The translations under genes and the position numbers were made by a program. Source: Nitrospira sp. (GTDB taxonomy: Bacteria > Nitrospirota > Nitrospiria > Nitrospirales > Nitrospiraceae). Taken from it: a DNA stretch of 58,416 nucleotides. Location of the stretch: the NCBI GenBank assembly GCA_005116945.1, contig SWDH01000003.1:54595-113010 (forward strand), written 5' to 3'. The notes below the pieces were generated by a model. It was not told where the DNA came from and did no database searches. It worked only from the letters and a program-made list of their open reading frames with translations. Positions 5,851 through 27,708 of the stretch are shown here, piece by piece (position 1 is the stretch's first letter; each line of letters begins with the position of its first letter).

Positions 5851-5859
5851 GCGAGAGGG

Positions 5860-5948
5860 TTGATTTGGTTCGTGTAGTTTGTTTGGTTTCTTTGGTTGGG
5901 CTGATCACCGAAACACACAAAACAAACCAAAAAGACGAGCAAAACCAG
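5860..5948 (+). repeat. TGGTTTGT/ACAAACCA palindromic repeat, copy B1
   Basis: A T/G-rich left half (TTTGTTTGGTTTCTTTGG at 5879-5896) faces an A/C-rich complementary right half (AAAACAAACCAAAAAG at 5919-5934). It fills the gap between the two ompH-like genes. Related copies occur at 16597, 20685, 26724, 27178 and 27926. Confidence 0.7.
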
Positions 5949-5960
5949 TGGGAGGCTTCG

Positions 5961-15551: not shown

Positions 15552-17249
15552 GTGAAGAAAGAAGCCATCAAGAAAATTCTTGTGCGTGGGCCCAACTGGT
15601 TGGGCGATGCGGTGATGTGCGAGCCCGCGCTCCGTGGATTGCGGGGGCTGTTTCCTGATGCGCAGGTGACACTCTTAGTGAAACCGGCTGTGGCCGATCT
15701 GTTTGTGGGGCATCCGGCAGTCACGCGCCTGTTGACCTACGACATCAAGGGGCGTCATGCGGGGTTCTCGGGAAAGTGGGCGTTGGCCAAGCAGTTGCGG
15801 CGGCAAGGCTTCGATCTGGCGGTCTTGTTTCAGAATGCGTTTGAGGCGGCCTTCCTGACATTTCTGGCACGTGTGCCTTGCCGGTATGGGTATGCGACAG
15901 ACGGTCGGAGTGTGCTGTTATCCGATCCAGTCGCTGTGCCGGATCCACGCATGCTCCTTCATCAAGTCCGCTATTATTGGGATCTGTTGAAGCCGCTGGG
16001 CCTCATGGGCGATCCTCCGGTACCGGAACTCGTCGTCCTGCCCGAGGAGGAACAGGCCATGGTGGGGCGATGTGCGCAGGGCGGGTTGACTCCTACGGAT
16101 ATCGTCGTTGGGATCAATCCGGGATCGACCTATGGCGATGCCAAACGCTGGCTCCCGGAACGGTTTGCCGAGGTCACGGAACAACTCTGCCGAACGATCC
16201 ATACATCTCCAGGGCAACAGGTCAGTGTGGTCATTTTTGGGGCGAAAGGGGAAGAGCATTTGGGCCAGGAGATTGCTGCACGCCTATCGTCCCGTTCCCT
16301 GGTCTTGTCCGGGGCGACGACGATCAGGGAACTCATGGCAGCGGTGAAGCGGTGCAGCCTGCTTCTCACAAATGATACCGGCCCCATGCATATCGCCTCT
16401 GCGTTCAAAGTCCCGGTTGTGGCCGTCTTCGGGCCGACCGATTGGCGCACCACGTCGCCATTTGGGGGCGCACATGCCATTGTTCGGGAGCCCGTCGATT
16501 GTGCGCCCTGCCTGTTGCGTGAATGTCCGATTGACCATCGGTGCATGACAAGAGTCACCGTTGATCAGGTTTATGAGGCGGCAACGAAGCAGATAGCTGG
16601 TCTCTCTGGTTCATCTGGTTTGTCTAGTTCTTCTGGTTCAACCCAAATACACAAGATCAACCAAACAAACCAGACAAACCTTCTCGACGGTATCACCGTG
16701 TTTCTGGATCGAGATGGAACATTGAACTACGATCCAGGCTATTTGAAAATTGCCGCTGATCTGAAGCTATTAGCAGGGGTGGGTCCGGCTCTGGCGCGTT
16801 TAAAAAAGGTTGGGGCTAAATTGGTGGTTGTGACCAATCAATCCGGTGTCGGCCGTGGAATCTTGACACTAAAAGATTTGGAAGCGATTCATGCCAGGTT
16901 GCAAGGTCTGTTGGAGCAGGAGGACGTGGCGCTTGACGCAATCTATTTCTGCCCGCACCATCCTGATGACGGGTGCCGCTGTCGCAAGCCGAATGTGGGC
17001 ATGGTGGAGCGGGCTGTATCGGAGTTGCAATTGGATTTCCGTCGTTTCTATTTGATTGGCGACCACGCACGCGACATACAACTAGCGCATAGGGTAGGCG
17101 CTAAGTCTGTTCTCCTGACGCCAGCGCTGGCAGATGCGCAATCGTTGGAGAGGCTCAAGGCTGAAAAGGCGATGCCGGATGCCATGGCGAAGTCGATGGC
17201 TGAGGCCGTTGATTGGATCTTAGAGGACGCGAAGACGCGCCCCAGGTAG
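15552..17249 (+). CDS. waaF-gmhB: heptosyltransferase II fused to heptose-bisphosphate phosphatase (WaaF-GmhB)
   Basis: A 565-residue two-domain protein of LPS core synthesis. Residues 1-345 are a GT9 heptosyltransferase: LVRGPNWLGDAVMCEPALRG at the start, NPGSTYGDAKRWLPERFAEV and TNDTGPMHIASAFKVPVVAV. Residues about 379-560 are a HAD phosphatase of the GmhB type: VFLDRDGTLNYDPGY with the nucleophile Asp, TNQSGVGRG, the zinc-loop-like CPHHPDDGCRCRKPN and IGDHARDIQLA. GmhB removes the 7-phosphate from heptose 1,7-bisphosphate, so supply and transfer of heptose are joined. The linker (residues about 349-376, Gly/Ser-rich then NQTNQTN) is encoded exactly by the B2 repeat, so repeat insertion probably caused the fusion. 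Start GTG 15552. Confidence 0.9.
   Translation: MKKEAIKKILVRGPNWLGDAVMCEPALRGLRGLFPDAQVTLLVKPAVADLFVGHPAVTRLLTYDIKGRHAGFSGKWALAKQLRRQGFDLAVLFQNAFEAAFLTFLARVPCRYGYATDGRSVLLSDPVAVPDPRMLLHQVRYYWDLLKPLGLMGDPPVPELVVLPEEEQAMVGRCAQGGLTPTDIVVGINPGSTYGDAKRWLPERFAEVTEQLCRTIHTSPGQQVSVVIFGAKGEEHLGQEIAARLSSRSLVLSGATTIRELMAAVKRCSLLLTNDTGPMHIASAFKVPVVAVFGPTDWRTTSPFGGAHAIVREPVDCAPCLLRECPIDHRCMTRVTVDQVYEAATKQIAGLSGSSGLSSSSGSTQIHKINQTNQTNLLDGITVFLDRDGTLNYDPGYLKIAADLKLLAGVGPALARLKKVGAKLVVVTNQSGVGRGILTLKDLEAIHARLQGLLEQEDVALDAIYFCPHHPDDGCRCRKPNVGMVERAVSELQLDFRRFYLIGDHARDIQLAHRVGAKSVLLTPALADAQSLERLKAEKAMPDAMAKSMAEAVDWILEDAKTRPR
16597..16680 (+). repeat. TGGTTTGT/ACAAACCA palindromic repeat, copy B2, inside a coding region
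   Basis: Left half TCTGGTTCATCTGGTTTGTC (16605-16624) and right half AACCAAACAAACCAGACAAA (16659-16678) are the same motifs as the intergenic copies. Here the reading frame stays open: the left half encodes GLSGSSGLSSSSGS and the right half INQTNQTN, forming the linker of the WaaF-GmhB fusion. Confidence 0.8.
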
Positions 17250-17290
17250 ATAGGCTGAAGGGGTTCAGGCTGAAGGTGTTAGGGGTAAAG
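17250..17290 (+). repeat. GGCTGAAGG repeat, copy D2
   Basis: ATAGGCTGAAGGGGTTCAGG and CTGAAGGTGTTAGGGG lie immediately before a four-helix-bundle gene; an inverted counterpart (D3) lies immediately after it. Confidence 0.55.
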
Positions 17291-17291
17291 C

Positions 17292-17644
17292 ATGCGGGAC
17301 CACACACAGCTTCGGGCATTTGAGTTGGCTGATGAAGTCGTCCTGTTGGTGTATCGACAACCGCAGGGTTTCCGAAAGAAGAGTTGTATGGACTGACTTC
17401 TCAAATTCGACGGGCAGAAGTTTCAGTCCCGTCTAACATTGTAGAGGGTTGCGCTCGTGACAGTGAGGCAGAGTATCTCAGGTTTCTCAGTATAGCCTTC
17501 GGGTCCTTGAGGGAATTACACTATCAACTGAATTTATCGAAGCGCTTGGGTTTCTTGCTCAACGAGGATTCATCTTCGCTTGAGCGCAAGATCGTAGAAA
17601 CGGAGAAGGTGTTGAATGGCTTGATCTGTGCCTTGCGCGATTAA
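17292..17644 (+). pseudogene. S23-type four-helix-bundle protein, frameshifted
   Basis: Small protein of the family first seen as an open frame inside spirochaete 23S rRNA genes and structurally related to Avd of diversity-generating retroelements; function unknown. From ATG 17292 the frame gives MRDHTQLRAFELADEVVLLV and stops at 17396. The rest of the protein (LYGLTSQIRRAEVSVPSNIVEGCAR to LNGLICALRD) is in the next frame to 17644. Adding one G in the GGG run near 17366 would join them as QPQGFPKEELYGLTSQ, the normal family sequence. Inverted GGCTGAAGG repeats flank the gene on both sides. Confidence 0.85.
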
Positions 17645-17692
17645 CTCATAGCCTTCAACCGGACGATTCATAACCTTCAGCCTAAACCCCCA
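17645..17692 (-). repeat. GGCTGAAGG repeat, copy D3 (inverted)
   Basis: AGCCTTCAACC and TAACCTTCAGCCTAAACCCC are the reverse complement of the D2 units, so D2 and D3 form inverted repeats around the four-helix-bundle gene. Confidence 0.55.
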
Positions 17693-19748: not shown

Positions 19749-19937
19749 CAGGACGCTCAAAAAGTCTCCCTTCTCACCCGCCCAACCCGTGCGCGCCGAG
19801 ACGCGTCTTTTCCCATGCGGCATGCGCGAAATCTGTGAAGCGTATCTCGTGAAGCGTCGTTCGTTTCCGGATTCGGACGTTTCACGCTTCACGTTTCACG
19901 AACGACGAGGATGGCCGCTCAAGGTGCTCCATGTCTA
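19728..19937 (+). mobile_element. small inserted element flanked by a 20-bp direct repeat
   Basis: CTCAAGGTTATCCATGTCTA (19728-19747) ends the GT9 gene, and CTCAAGGTGCTCCATGTCTA (19918-19937) carries the start of the next GT2 gene. Between them lie the MITE-A terminus CAGGACGCTCAAAAAGT (19749-19765) and a C-type hairpin whose arms CGTCGTTCGT (19855-19864) and ACGAACGACG (19898-19907) pair perfectly. Without the element the GT9 stop and GT2 start would overlap. A 65-codon open frame across it (19741-19938) is probably not a gene. Confidence 0.65.
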
Positions 19938-20684: not shown

Positions 20685-20793
20685 CCGTGTTTATCTTGTT
20701 CGTCTGGTTCATCTTGTTAGTTTGGTTTATCTCGTTAGTAACCGGAGTGACCAGACAAACCAAATAAACGAAACAACCAGACAAACCGTTCAA
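20685..20793 (+). repeat. TGGTTTGT/ACAAACCA palindromic repeat, copy B3
   Basis: Left half with TCGTCTGGTTCATCTTG and TTAGTTTGGTTTATCTCG, right half with ACCAGACAAACCAAATAAAC and AACAACCAGACAAACC. It fills the space between two GT2 genes and ends three bases before the next ATG. Confidence 0.75.
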
Positions 20794-22357: not shown

Positions 22358-23420
22358 TCTGATCGCATTGCTGCACACACTCGATCGCCAGACATGGGAG
22401 CCGCATGTGATCTGTCCGGGAACGGGCCCGTTCCGAGAGCAGCTGCACGCGATCGCCGTCCCCACTCATGCACTGAGTCTTCCCCCCTGGAGAAAGCCTC
22501 TCGCTGTGTTTCAGCGCCGATCGGCGATCGGGCATTTTGGTGCTCTTGTGGGCCAACTCGATCCAGCCTTGGTTCATGTGAACGATATCTGGTGGGTGCC
22601 CCATACCGTGAGAGCCATCGAGAGTGGTCGGTCTCATTCCATGCCGATCGTGGCCCATGTGAGGCAGGAAATCGAACCGGAGAAGGTGGGACGCTATGAG
22701 CTTGATCGGGTCGAGGCCGTCATTGCCATTTCCAGACAGATTGAGCAATCGCTCATTACCGGTGGTGTTTCGATGAGCAGGGTACGGACTCTCTATAGTG
22801 GAATTGATTGTTCCAAGAGACCATCTACCCGCGATGACCAGGCGATTCGTCAGATGCTCGGGCTCCCGAACGATGCCGTCTTATTGGGCACCGTTGCCAA
22901 TCTGTTCCCACGAAAAGGCTATGAGGTGATGCTTCGAGCGCTTCCGGCCATCGTCCACGCACTACCCACGGTGCATTATGTGATCGTGGGCAGTGATGAT
23001 CACGGCTATGCCGATCGATTGACACGGCTCGCGAACGAATTGAGAATTGCCGACCGCGTACACATTGTCGGCTTTCAGGACCCGGTTCAGCCGTTCCTGG
23101 CCGCGCTCGATCTGTATATGCATCCTGCACTCATGGAGGGCTTTGGGATTGCGGTGGTCGAAGCGATGGCGATGGGCAAAGCCGTGGTTGCGACGACAAC
23201 AGGAGGGCTTCCCGAAGTCGTAGCGCAGGGAGAGACCGGCTTGCTTGTTCCCCCGGGCGATGTCGAGTCATTAGCTGAAGCCGCGATTTCTCTTCTGGAA
23301 AATACGGTAAAGCGAGAGCAGATGGGGGTGTGCGGAAGGATGCGCGCGCAAGAGAGATTTAGCCTTGATGCGTCTGTCGCGCACATGGAACAGCTGTATG
23401 GAGAAGTATTGGGTGCGTAG
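22299..23420 (+). CDS. GT4-family glycosyltransferase
   Basis: Retaining GT-B glycosyltransferase of about 373 residues. The N-terminal half has RILYVNGVEAIGGAERDLIA; the C-terminal half has GTVANLFPRKGYEVMLRALP and the donor-site EGFGIAVVEAMAMGKAVVAT motif with the E-x7-E pair. GTG 22299 is chosen because the protein then begins just before the conserved first strand; the frame is open to GTG 22251, which would overlap the previous gene by 107 bp. Role in outer core synthesis is inferred from position. Confidence 0.82.
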   Translation: MGTRILYVNGVEAIGGAERDLIALLHTLDRQTWEPHVICPGTGPFREQLHAIAVPTHALSLPPWRKPLAVFQRRSAIGHFGALVGQLDPALVHVNDIWWVPHTVRAIESGRSHSMPIVAHVRQEIEPEKVGRYELDRVEAVIAISRQIEQSLITGGVSMSRVRTLYSGIDCSKRPSTRDDQAIRQMLGLPNDAVLLGTVANLFPRKGYEVMLRALPAIVHALPTVHYVIVGSDDHGYADRLTRLANELRIADRVHIVGFQDPVQPFLAALDLYMHPALMEGFGIAVVEAMAMGKAVVATTTGGLPEVVAQGETGLLVPPGDVESLAEAAISLLENTVKREQMGVCGRMRAQERFSLDASVAHMEQLYGEVLGA

Positions 23421-23494
23421 AAAGCTGCAAAAAAATCTGTAGCGCGTCAGAATCTCTCTGGCTTCCACGGTTAGGGCGATAGGAAAGCGGCGTG

Positions 23495-23619
23495 CAGGAT
23501 GCTCAAAAAGTTCGCCCAGCAAGGCCGCAGGCGAATCGAAACCAGAGGCGTACCCTCTGGGGTACGTTGAGGATTTCGATGAGTCGAGAACGAAGCTGGC
23601 GGACTATTTCAGCATCCTG
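23495..23619 (+). mobile_element. MITE-like element, copy A2
   Basis: About 125 bp with terminal inverted repeats CAGGATGCTCAAAAAGT and, from the other end, CAGGATGCTGAAATAGT. The interior has GCAAGGCCGCAGGCGAATCG, a palindrome around GCGTACCCTCTGGGGTACG and GAACGAAGCTGGCGG, closely matching A1 at 6689-6812. No coding capacity. Its right end is 13 bp before the next gene start. Confidence 0.75.
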
Positions 23620-23632
23620 AGAAGGGGAGAGG

Positions 23633-25835: not shown

Positions 25836-25992
25836 ACAGTTGTTCCGATCCTAGCGGATCCAGCCTATTGTTTGGTCTCAATCCCGCCACGATTTCCCAT
25901 ATCTTTCTCATTCGCATCATCTACGCCAGATTCAACCGAAATTGCCGACTCATCGTTGGGACACCGTAATGTCTAGCTACGTATTTTTTTGC

Positions 25993-26723: not shown

Positions 26724-26825
26724 GGTTTATTTGCTCGAAGAGGTTTGTTTGGTTTGTCAGATTGGAAGAATCGGTGTGATTGATCAACGAAACAAACCAA
26801 CTGACCTAATCAAACGAGATAAACC
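26724..26825 (+). repeat. TGGTTTGT/ACAAACCA palindromic repeat, copy B4
   Basis: Left half includes GAGGTTTGTTTGGTTTGTCA, right half CGAAACAAACCAACTGAC and GATAAACC. The right end touches the start codon of a four-helix-bundle gene. Confidence 0.75.
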
Positions 26826-27208
26826 ATGAAATTGACTCGATTTGAGGACCTAGATTGTTGGAAAGAAGCTCGACAGTTGACGCGGCAGGTCTACGAAGCC
26901 ATTGACCAGAACTCTGCATGGAAAAGAGATGTGCGTCTCTGTAGTCAGACCCAGAGCGCTGCAGGTTCGGCGATGGCCATATTGCGGAAGGGTTTGTGCG
27001 TCGCTCGAACAAAGAATTCGTGCATTTTCTATTCATTGCCATGTCGTCAACGGCAGAAGTTCAAAGCCATCTGTATATCGCCGTGGACCAAGGTTGTCCG
27101 TCCAAGGACGCATTTGAATCGATTTACGCGCAGACTGACCGGACGGGTCGAATCATCTCCGGACTCATAAAATACCTGCGTACCAAACAAACAAAATCAA
27201 CCAAATGA
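26826..27208 (+). pseudogene. S23-type four-helix-bundle protein, frameshifted
   Basis: Second member of the family in the window, only about 25% alike by eye to the one at 17292. From ATG 26826 the first frame reads MKLTRFEDLDCWKEARQLTR and SQTQSAAGSAM. The family sequence continues in another frame (FVRRSNKEFVHFLFIAMSST, then DRTGRIISGLIKYL) to the stop at 27208. Adding one A near 26980 would restore the usual NIAEGFVRRS motif. The gene is bounded by repeats B4 and B5; its last codons (TKQTKSTK) come from B5, and its stop overlaps the next start (ATGA). Confidence 0.85.
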
Positions 27209-27220
27209 ACCAGACAAACG
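27178..27220 (+). repeat. right half of the ACAAACCA repeat, copy B5
   Basis: ACCAAACAAACAAAATCAAC and CAAATGAACCAGACAAAC are the right-half motifs without the T/G-rich left half. The start codon of the NusG-like gene lies inside it. Confidence 0.7.
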
Positions 27221-27708
27221 CTCTTCATTGGTATGCCCTTCGGACGCGGTCGCGTCATGAAAAACTCGTGCGCGAACAGCTTACCAATCAAGGCATCGAG
27301 CCGTTATTGCCGACGGTCAAGCGGCTGAGTCAATGGAAGGATCGAAAGAAGGAAATCGAAGTCCCGCTCTTTTCAGGGTATTGCTTCGTCCACTTTTCGT
27401 CGGAGCAAAAACTACCGGTGCTCAAGACCATCGGTGTGATTGACATCGTGGGAAGCGGACAACGCCCTGAACCAATTCCAGATGAGGAGATCGCAGCGAT
27501 CAAGACTCTGATGACCAGCGTGCTGCCCTACGATCCACATCCGTATCTACACGAGGGCATGCAGGTGGAAGTGGTTCGCGGTCCGCTGCAAGGAGTGCGC
27601 GGGGTTCTCTTGCGCAAAGAAAAGCGCCATCGTCTAGTCCTGGGTGTTCGCCTCATTCAGCAAGCCGCAGCAGTGGAGATCGATGTGAACGATGTGGTGC
27701 CGGCGTAA
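27205..27708 (+). CDS. NusG-like elongation factor of the RfaH/UpxY type
   Basis: Specialised NusG paralogue of 167 residues, expected to bind RNA polymerase and carry transcription through the long polysaccharide operon. Seen: the NGN domain (LHWYALRTRSRHEKLVREQL, then VPLFSGYCFVHFS and IGVIDIVGSG) and a C-terminal KOW domain (EGMQVEVVRGPLQGVRGVLL). ATG 27205 and the first residues MNQTN are encoded by the B5 repeat. I looked for an ops-like GGCGGTAG element downstream and did not find one, so its loading signal is unknown. Confidence 0.88.
   Translation: MNQTNALHWYALRTRSRHEKLVREQLTNQGIEPLLPTVKRLSQWKDRKKEIEVPLFSGYCFVHFSSEQKLPVLKTIGVIDIVGSGQRPEPIPDEEIAAIKTLMTSVLPYDPHPYLHEGMQVEVVRGPLQGVRGVLLRKEKRHRLVLGVRLIQQAAAVEIDVNDVVPA

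What the first reader, a model, noticed from the sequence alone, without database searches (positions are those of the whole stretch)
16597..16680. A dispersed intergenic repeat is translated as the linker of a WaaF-GmhB fusion
The TGGTTTGT/ACAAACCA repeat that sits between genes at 5860, 20685 and 26724 occurs here inside an open frame. Its left half codes for a Gly/Ser-rich stretch and its right half for INQTNQTN, joining a complete heptosyltransferase to a complete heptose-bisphosphate phosphatase. A repeat insertion between waaF and gmhB thus seems to have created a gene fusion with a ready-made flexible linker.
Basis: partly seen in the sequence, partly recalled or inferred. Interest (0 to 1): 0.75.

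Follow-up and report, generated by a model that had tools for sequence, protein, structure and literature searches.

The report
Old enzyme fusion with swapped repeat linker
Two lipopolysaccharide enzymes that were fused long ago in Nitrospira and its relatives are joined by a stretch of translated DNA that is really a hairpin repeat, and closely related species can carry quite different repeats at this one spot while the reading frame is kept.

Summary
Window 16597-16680 is a palindromic array of CTGGTTTGT-type units, translated inside a 565-codon WaaF-GmhB ORF. The fusion is older than the repeat: it occurs with short, repeat-free linkers in outgroup lineages, and it is intact across the junction in all 29 readable genomes of the 37 of the window's family searched. 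What is new is the linker. Related species carry different families of hairpin repeats there (CTGGTTTGT, CTGGTCTGT, GGGGTAA, GGGGCAA, CTGACAGG, AAGTCNGA). Swaps are sharp: the window and its sister genome are 91-99% identical on both sides of the linker but 43% within it, while two more distant genomes share a linker at 90% with flanks at 71-84%. A quick tree needs at least 10 family changes. Nearby spacers turn over too; in one genome type-A repeats avoid genes (1 of 28 mid-ORF). AlphaFold's one long disordered stretch is residues 352-373. Similar arms flank IVP (PF05635) genes, a possible source. Closest known: Rickettsia palindromic elements. How cassettes change, and whether the protein exists, are untested.

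The parts
15552..17249 (+). Fused ORF, 565 codons, heptosyltransferase II (WaaF) - linker - HAD-IIIA heptose-bisphosphate phosphatase (GmhB-like)
15573..16586 (+). WaaF part, residues 8-345
   Evidence: TIGR02195 above cut-off
16597..16680 (+). Translated palindromic repeat (type A1, 9-bp CTGGTTTGT units): left arm about 16597-16637, right arm about 16651-16680; codes residues 349-376
   Evidence: pLDDT under 50 at residues 352-373
16695..17225 (+). GmhB-like phosphatase part, residues 382-558
   Evidence: TIGR01656 above cut-off, GmhB-specific models below theirs
5852..5951 (.). Intergenic type-A palindromic repeat; an unrelated 321-nt spacer stands here in sister genome G028
20685..20788 (.). 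Intergenic type-A palindromic repeat
26724..26827 (.). Intergenic type-A palindromic repeat upstream of a broken IVP (PF05635) frame
27181..27222 (.). Type-A arm downstream of the broken IVP frame; supplies ATG and MNQTNA of ORF 27205-27708
17260..17690 (+). IVP (PF05635) gene 17384-17644 between 18-nt inverted arms 17260-17277 and 17673-17690

Best explanation
The WaaF-GmhB fusion is ancient in Nitrospirota. Shown: within the family of the window's genome (Nitrospira-like), the junction between the two folded domains often carries palindromic repeats, of five or six unit families, and in several close pairs of species the repeat has been exchanged as a sharp-edged cassette with the frame kept. 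Inferred: this junction is a rare coding place where such repeats are tolerated, because a stop-free, frame-keeping insert of some 20-35 residues is harmless between two folded domains, while selection on the phosphatase part removes frame-breaking inserts. So the junction behaves like an intergenic spacer that happens to be translated. How cassettes move (excision and insertion of an element, or very short-patch recombination between populations) is open. The repeats are probably solo relatives of the inverted arms that also flank IVP (four-helix-bundle) genes in these genomes.
For: Fusion older: repeat-free fused outgroups. Cassette swaps, from 22 pairs that I chose: window/G028 flank blocks 91-99%, linker 43%; L047/L052 77-92% against 38%; L042/L046 78-95% against 28%; L044/L056 81-97% against 32% (two of its left blocks without data); conversely L032/L052 linker 90% with flanks 71-84%, L044/L045 linker 93% with flanks 72-87%; edges lie within about 10 nt of the repeat. 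The L032 linker matches over its full length only itself and the same site of G030; other scored hits reach about 77% over about 60 nt or cover shorter pieces (at most 14 candidates a genome were scored). Unit families: 40 of 71 distinct linkers labelled; fewest changes 10 on 39 labelled rows. Linker DNA folds better than same-gene windows: mean z -2.0 against -0.22, 60 linkers, 18 of them under -3. In frame in 29 of 29 readable genomes of family f1 and 31 of 32 loci L061-L092 (six of the fused ones repeat linkers of L031-L060). Spacers of sister genomes are swapped too. In 800 kb of G027, 1 of 28 type-A elements is mid-ORF against 49% of random placements.
Against: 31 of 71 linkers carry no recognised family, 15 of them inside the 54-row family clade; some may be decayed, some never had one. 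The change count of 10 equals the lowest value of 200 label shuffles (mean 12.55), so families do follow descent in part, for example the C linkers. Dispersal in the genome is well shown only for types A and B; types C and D are rare with the patterns used (C 0-9 matches a genome, in G002 the linker alone; D in 4 of 37 genomes, 3 matches each in G017 and G020 including the linker itself), and E and the CCCTCCCC type were not searched genome-wide. An outgroup linker, L094 (gap 48), also folds well (z -3.7), so inserts may not be confined to this family. In pairs G005/G030 and G018/G009, 4 other low-identity windows were also mid-ORF. Unit patterns were chosen after looking at the linkers. The tree is the quick kind and the gene itself may be recombinant. 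No target-site duplication was seen at the linker, and no transposase was looked for. No protein or RNA data.
Confidence: 0.8

Rival explanations
1. One reading: insertion of the TGGTTTGT repeat between separate waaF and gmhB genes created the fusion and its linker.
For: The repeat exactly fills the junction; separate adjacent genes exist in another family of the order (f3: L142-L145, L147).
Against: Fused, repeat-free, short-linker proteins in outgroups and in families f2 and f4; sister species fused with a different repeat.
Confidence: 0.04
2. A special case of the best explanation, about how the change happens: linker alleles are exchanged between co-existing Nitrospira populations by short-patch homologous recombination through the conserved sequence on both sides; no active element is involved at this site now.
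For: L032 and L052 linkers are alike along their whole length (90%) though hosts differ; flanking residues are conserved; spacers around are swapped.
Against: Donor flanking variants stop within about 10 nt of the cassette, tighter than ordinary recombination tracts usually are (recalled).
Confidence: 0.45
3. The hairpin itself is kept for an RNA-level role, such as slowing the ribosome between domains or guarding the mRNA.
For: Linker DNA is more self-complementary than the rest of the gene.
Against: Pairing has decayed in several type-A linkers (z about 0 or positive for L033, L054, L068, L091), and fused relatives with short linkers have no room for it.
Confidence: 0.08
4. Artefact of metagenome assembly: linkers of different species joined wrongly.
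For: Nearly all named records are metagenome-assembled by their titles.
Against: Dozens of loci from separate records, in frame with few exceptions, with the same two edges, families shared between independent records.
Confidence: 0.03

Closest known systems
Rickettsia palindromic elements (RPE) and the like in Wolbachia
   Same: Small palindromic repeats present between genes and in frame inside conserved protein genes, apparently tolerated (PMC10969869 and PMC2229807, passages only; one original paper by Ogata and colleagues was asked for and is not held).
   Different: RPEs sit in many unrelated genes, nearly half of them in ORFs (passage); here type-A elements avoid ORFs in the one genome sampled (1 of 28) and one domain junction takes several different families. 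Units are short tandem 7-9-mers, not an element of about 105-150 bp with a conserved peptide.
REP / BIME and MITE-type repeats of bacteria
   Same: Dispersed, palindromic, mostly intergenic.
   Different: REPs seldom overlap protein-coding regions (PMC12306157, passage; its table counts REP candidates in Nitrospira moscoviensis, without sequences in the passage seen). GTAG/CGTC tags, transposase and target duplications were not systematically tested.
23S rRNA intervening sequences with S23/IVP gene
   Same: An S23/IVP gene in the loop of inverted terminal arms (PMC4990558, passages); the window's repeats make the same kind of arms around IVP genes.
   Different: Here the IVP units looked at in the window lie beside ordinary protein genes, arms differ from locus to locus, and solo arms occur inside a protein gene.

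Membership tests
Rickettsia-type protein-coding palindromic elements (as a kind) | palindromic repeat present both between genes and in frame in a conserved gene | tested here: met
Rickettsia-type protein-coding palindromic elements (as a kind) | relatives lacking the insert keep the gene intact (insert is extra) | tested here: met
   short repeat-free linkers in L093, L095, L097, L099, L125, L126, L136, L146, L150-L153
Rickettsia-type protein-coding palindromic elements (as a kind) | sequence homology to a named RPE family or its conserved peptide | not tested
   no RPE sequence was fetched or compared
MITE | terminal inverted repeats with target-site duplication and a related transposase | tested here: inconclusive
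   inverted arms present; edges compared with swapped sites show no duplication by eye, but a true empty site in a close relative is lacking; no transposase search was made
REP/RAYT | GTAG or CGTC-tagged stem-loop with a RAYT (TnpA-REP) gene in the genome | not tested
   -
IVS/IVP elements | inverted arms around an S23/IVP gene | tested here: not met
   the linker has arms only, no IVP gene; elsewhere 22 of 30 PF05635 loci exceed the 95% null for flanking inverted arms
WaaF (heptosyltransferase II) | curated score | tested here: met
   TIGR02195 196.7 bits against 134.6
GmhB (heptose-bisphosphate phosphatase) | curated score of GmhB-specific models | tested here: not met
   NF006506 165.2 of 178, TIGR00213 128.5 of 149.6; broader TIGR01656 met

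The most novel reading that the evidence does not exclude
Nitrospira genomes host a class of elements made of inverted arrays of 6-9-bp units whose unit sequence differs from copy to copy. Some hold an IVP (four-helix-bundle) gene in the loop, some are solo arms, and they replace one another at spacers. The WaaF-GmhB junction is their one regular coding landing site, so an enzyme linker is being re-written again and again by different elements without loss of the fusion.
Probability: 0.35. Interest if true: 0.75.

Novelty: new variant of a known kind. Interest (0 to 1): 0.55.

Why it matters
It is a natural series of linker replacements in one fused pair of lipopolysaccharide enzymes: the same two domains, joined by several unrelated translated repeats, with near-identical flanks as internal control. 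That makes it possible to test directly how much sequence, length and composition of an interdomain linker matter, and to watch small hairpin repeats become protein. It also points to arms of IVP genes as a possible source of these spacer repeats.

Tried and rejected
Repeat made the fusion: rejected. Independent start of GmhB inside the linker: by eye the in-frame start codon in the window's repeat is a TTG near 16620, and only L034 and L035 (with its duplicate L062) show an in-frame ATG just before the phosphatase part; not pursued with a ribosome-site model. RNA role of the hairpin: rejected as main explanation because pairing decays. L058 has a run of N across the junction and says nothing; L155 gave no junction; of the 37 genomes of family f1 (G000-G036), 29 had a readable junction, the other 8 did not or had no match of this protein. 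Rows dropped: L146 from the tree (83 residues), L058 and L155 from the counts; L149 was labelled B by the rule, relabelled G by me for and left out; for I also relabelled L060, L067, L072, L083 and L084 by eye. One search, with these and with 'none' as a state, gave 21 changes (25 with A1 and A2 apart). The family patterns were written after seeing the linkers, and its null is a letter shuffle. The control pattern (pattern read backwards) is nearly mirror-symmetric, so those control counts, which are high, are no proper null. Types C and D are thin in the genomes. One search picks the IVP frame by a simple motif rule; a few of its 30 frames (for example L187, L195, L209) are longer than an IVP gene and may be another frame, and one locus (L204) is under the family's cut-off. 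One search is capped at 80 loci. Papers: searches listed no paper that by title, abstract start or the passages seen describes this junction; I opened passages of four papers only, and the library lacks most subscription papers, so absence there is weak.

Full report
What is there. Window 15552-17249 is one open frame of 565 codons. Residues 8-345 match heptosyltransferase II above its curated cut-off; residues 382-558 match HAD-IIIA phosphatases, with the GmhB-specific models under theirs. Between them, 16597-16680 is a palindromic array of degenerate CTGGTTTGT units. The word TGGTTTGT occurs 12 times in the window against 1.66 expected, the stretch folds with z = -4.4, and the window's genome holds 108 matches to a 17-letter form of the array (52 forward, 56 reverse, up to 2 mismatches; the backward-pattern control gives 40 and 40 but is nearly mirror-symmetric and so a weak control). 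A 22-letter form was found in 33 of 61 genomes searched, 30 of them in the same genus. AlphaFold (24 sequences, mean pLDDT 85.7, pTM 0.62) leaves residues 352-373 under 50, inside the repeat-coded residues 349-376, and otherwise only 320-322.

The fusion is old. Of 61 genomes searched with the protein, 54 match; 32 have one row that spans both domains in one open frame, from three families of the order (f1, f2, f4), and G039 has both parts in a 542-codon frame. The nearest named relatives are Nitrospira, and fused loci include records titled Manganitrophaceae, Troglogloeales and Thermodesulfovibrio (one search keeps the best 80 loci only). Of loci L031-L140, 69 of 110 have both motifs in one frame. 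Outgroup linkers are mostly short, 28-31 residues from the WaaF cysteine motif to the phosphatase motif (L093, L095, L097, L099, L125, L126, L136), against 41-65 in the Nitrospira family; two other outgroup loci have 35 (L096) and 48 (L094), and that of L094 folds well (z -3.7). Families f2 and f4 of the same order also have fused members without a recognised repeat (L146, L150-L153). Family f3 has two separate genes (L142-L145, L147), and one f4 genome (L148) differs from its fused relatives by a stop overlapping a start. So a repeat was not needed to make the fusion.

The linker is a changing cassette. Lining up the junctions showed that different species have different repeat families there. 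A rule on unit counts with letter shuffles labelled 40 of 71 distinct linkers: A1 19, A2 7, C 5, B 3, D 3, E 3; 31 had none. I think one of the B labels (L149) is really a CCCTCCCC palindrome, as in L060. Linker DNA is more self-complementary than windows of the same gene: mean z -2.0 against -0.22, 18 of 60 under -3 (11 linkers were too short to score). On a 70-row tree of the domains without the linker (quick method), well-supported sister pairs differ: L031 A1 and L032 B, L047 A1 and L052 B, L042 A2 and L046 E, L044 D and L056 A2. The fewest changes for 39 rule-labelled rows with A1 and A2 merged is 10 (five families, so at least 4 are needed); 200 label shuffles gave mean 12.55, range 10-13. 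So families follow descent in part (the C linkers group together) but change far more often than once each.

The swap is sharp. I compared 22 chosen pairs in 150-nt blocks. The window and G028 are 91-99% identical on both sides and 43% in the linker; L047/L052, L042/L046 and L044/L056 behave alike (38%, 28%, 32%). Conversely L032 and L052 share their linker at 90% with flanks at 71-84%, and L044 and L045 at 93% with 72-87%. Pairs of one family look ordinary, for example L034/L031 with 91% linker and 78-88% flanks. Codon alignments place the edges within about 10 nt of the repeat. The L032 linker finds, among 61 genomes, itself (100%) and the same site of G030 (90%) over its length; other scored hits cover part of it or reach about 77% over about 60 nt, with at most 14 candidates scored per genome. 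So L032 and L052 most likely hold the same cassette by descent or transfer at this locus, not two independent draws from the genomic pool.

How dispersed each family is. Type A is abundant in the genus and type B occurs in 22 of 61 genomes, 24 matches in G030 and 4 in G028 including the linker. Type A2 has 6 to 348 matches in 22 of 23 genomes of the genus searched and 3 in the other, but its pattern overlaps type A and its control is useless. Types C and D are rare: C in 13 of 37 genomes with 1-9 matches (in G002 only the linker), D in 4 of 37, among them both genomes of this set with a D linker (G017, G020). E and the CCCTCCCC type were not searched genome-wide.

The frame is kept. All 29 readable genomes among 37 of family f1 are in frame across the junction (L058 unreadable), as are 31 of 32 loci L061-L092, six of the fused loci being duplicates of L031-L060. 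Exceptions, told in full: L090 is out of frame with stops in the WaaF frame, and L100 carries a different palindromic insert with stops. With several swaps, keeping frame each time points to selection for the joined product or for coupled translation; that is inference.

Spacers do the same. Between the window and G028 (91.9% identical over 26.7 kb) the spacers at 5852-5951 and 19766-19935 are replaced by unrelated sequence, 23411-23620 is present only in the window and a palindromic insert at 25973 only in G028. Over five sister pairs one search lists 14 gaps with 30 nt or more on both sides and 8 one-sided ones of 30-1500 nt, plus one larger; one of the 14 includes a run of N in G028, and I looked at the sequences only for the window/G028 pair. 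A scan inside aligned blocks of six pairs found 24 low-identity windows; 8 were mid-ORF in both genomes, 4 of them this linker, 2 in G005/G030 and 2 in G018/G009 not examined further. In 800 kb of G027, 28 type-A palindromes were found (0 in one letter shuffle); 1 of 28 was mid-ORF and 4 lay near an end of an ORF of 200 codons or more, against 49% mid-ORF for 140 random placements. The junction is thus an unusual coding place for repeats that otherwise keep to spacers, as far as one genome and one family tell.

A possible source. PF05635 (23S rRNA IVP, four-helix bundle) genes occur in 12 of 21 genomes searched and in none of 14 control genomes. In 22 of 30 loci the flanks hold an inverted pair above the 95% point of mismatched pairs, made of 6-9-bp tandem units that differ between loci (mean best periodicity 0.57, shuffled 0.46). 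Among them are arms of types A (L191), A2 (L201), B (L181, L186) and C (L190), and, by eye, look-alikes of D (L183, L184) and E (L205). In the window itself, type-A arms stand on both sides of a broken IVP frame at 26724-27222, and other arms around the IVP gene at 17384. I infer that the linker repeats are solo relatives of these arms. Nothing here shows movement by IVP.

What is known. The nearest kind is the Rickettsia palindromic element, translated inside conserved genes; one such protein was shown to stay active, with changed substrate affinity (passages in PMC2229807, and PMC10969869). The new points are a single junction taking several families, near-identical flanks around unrelated linkers, and the link to IVP arms. 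My paper searches listed no account of this, in a library that lacks most subscription journals.

Limits. Most genomes are metagenome-assembled or unnamed; the tree is quick; repeat families were defined after inspection; no expression data exist; how cassettes change is open.

Noticed in passing
window 17260-17690: IVP (PF05635) gene between inverted arms, directly downstream of the fusion; IVP matches also stand next to the fusion in G003, G006, G009 and G011.
   Followed up: partly
window 26724-27225: Broken IVP frame between type-A arms; the right arm supplies the ATG and first residues (MNQTNA) of ORF 27205-27708, which by eye resembles a NusG-like start.
   Followed up: partly
L181-L210: Flanks of IVP genes are often inverted arrays of 6-9-bp units, with units that differ from locus to locus.
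   Followed up: partly
window 11686: Sister G028 has 602 nt more here, inside a frame of about 610 codons (ABC-transporter-like by eye); the window's copy may be deleted or misassembled.
   Followed up: no
window 25973 and G028 contig 10: G028 carries a roughly 200-nt palindromic insert bounded by CTAG on both sides where the window has a single CTAG.
   Followed up: no
L100: Junction of WaaF and the phosphatase is split by a different palindromic insert (TGTTGAAAAA...TTTTTCAACA) with in-frame stops.
   Followed up: no
L094: An outgroup fused locus has a longer linker (gap 48) that folds well as a hairpin (z -3.7).
   Followed up: no
L146, L148, L153: Within one genus of family f4 the two genes are fused in two genomes and separated by an overlapping stop/start in a third.
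   Followed up: no
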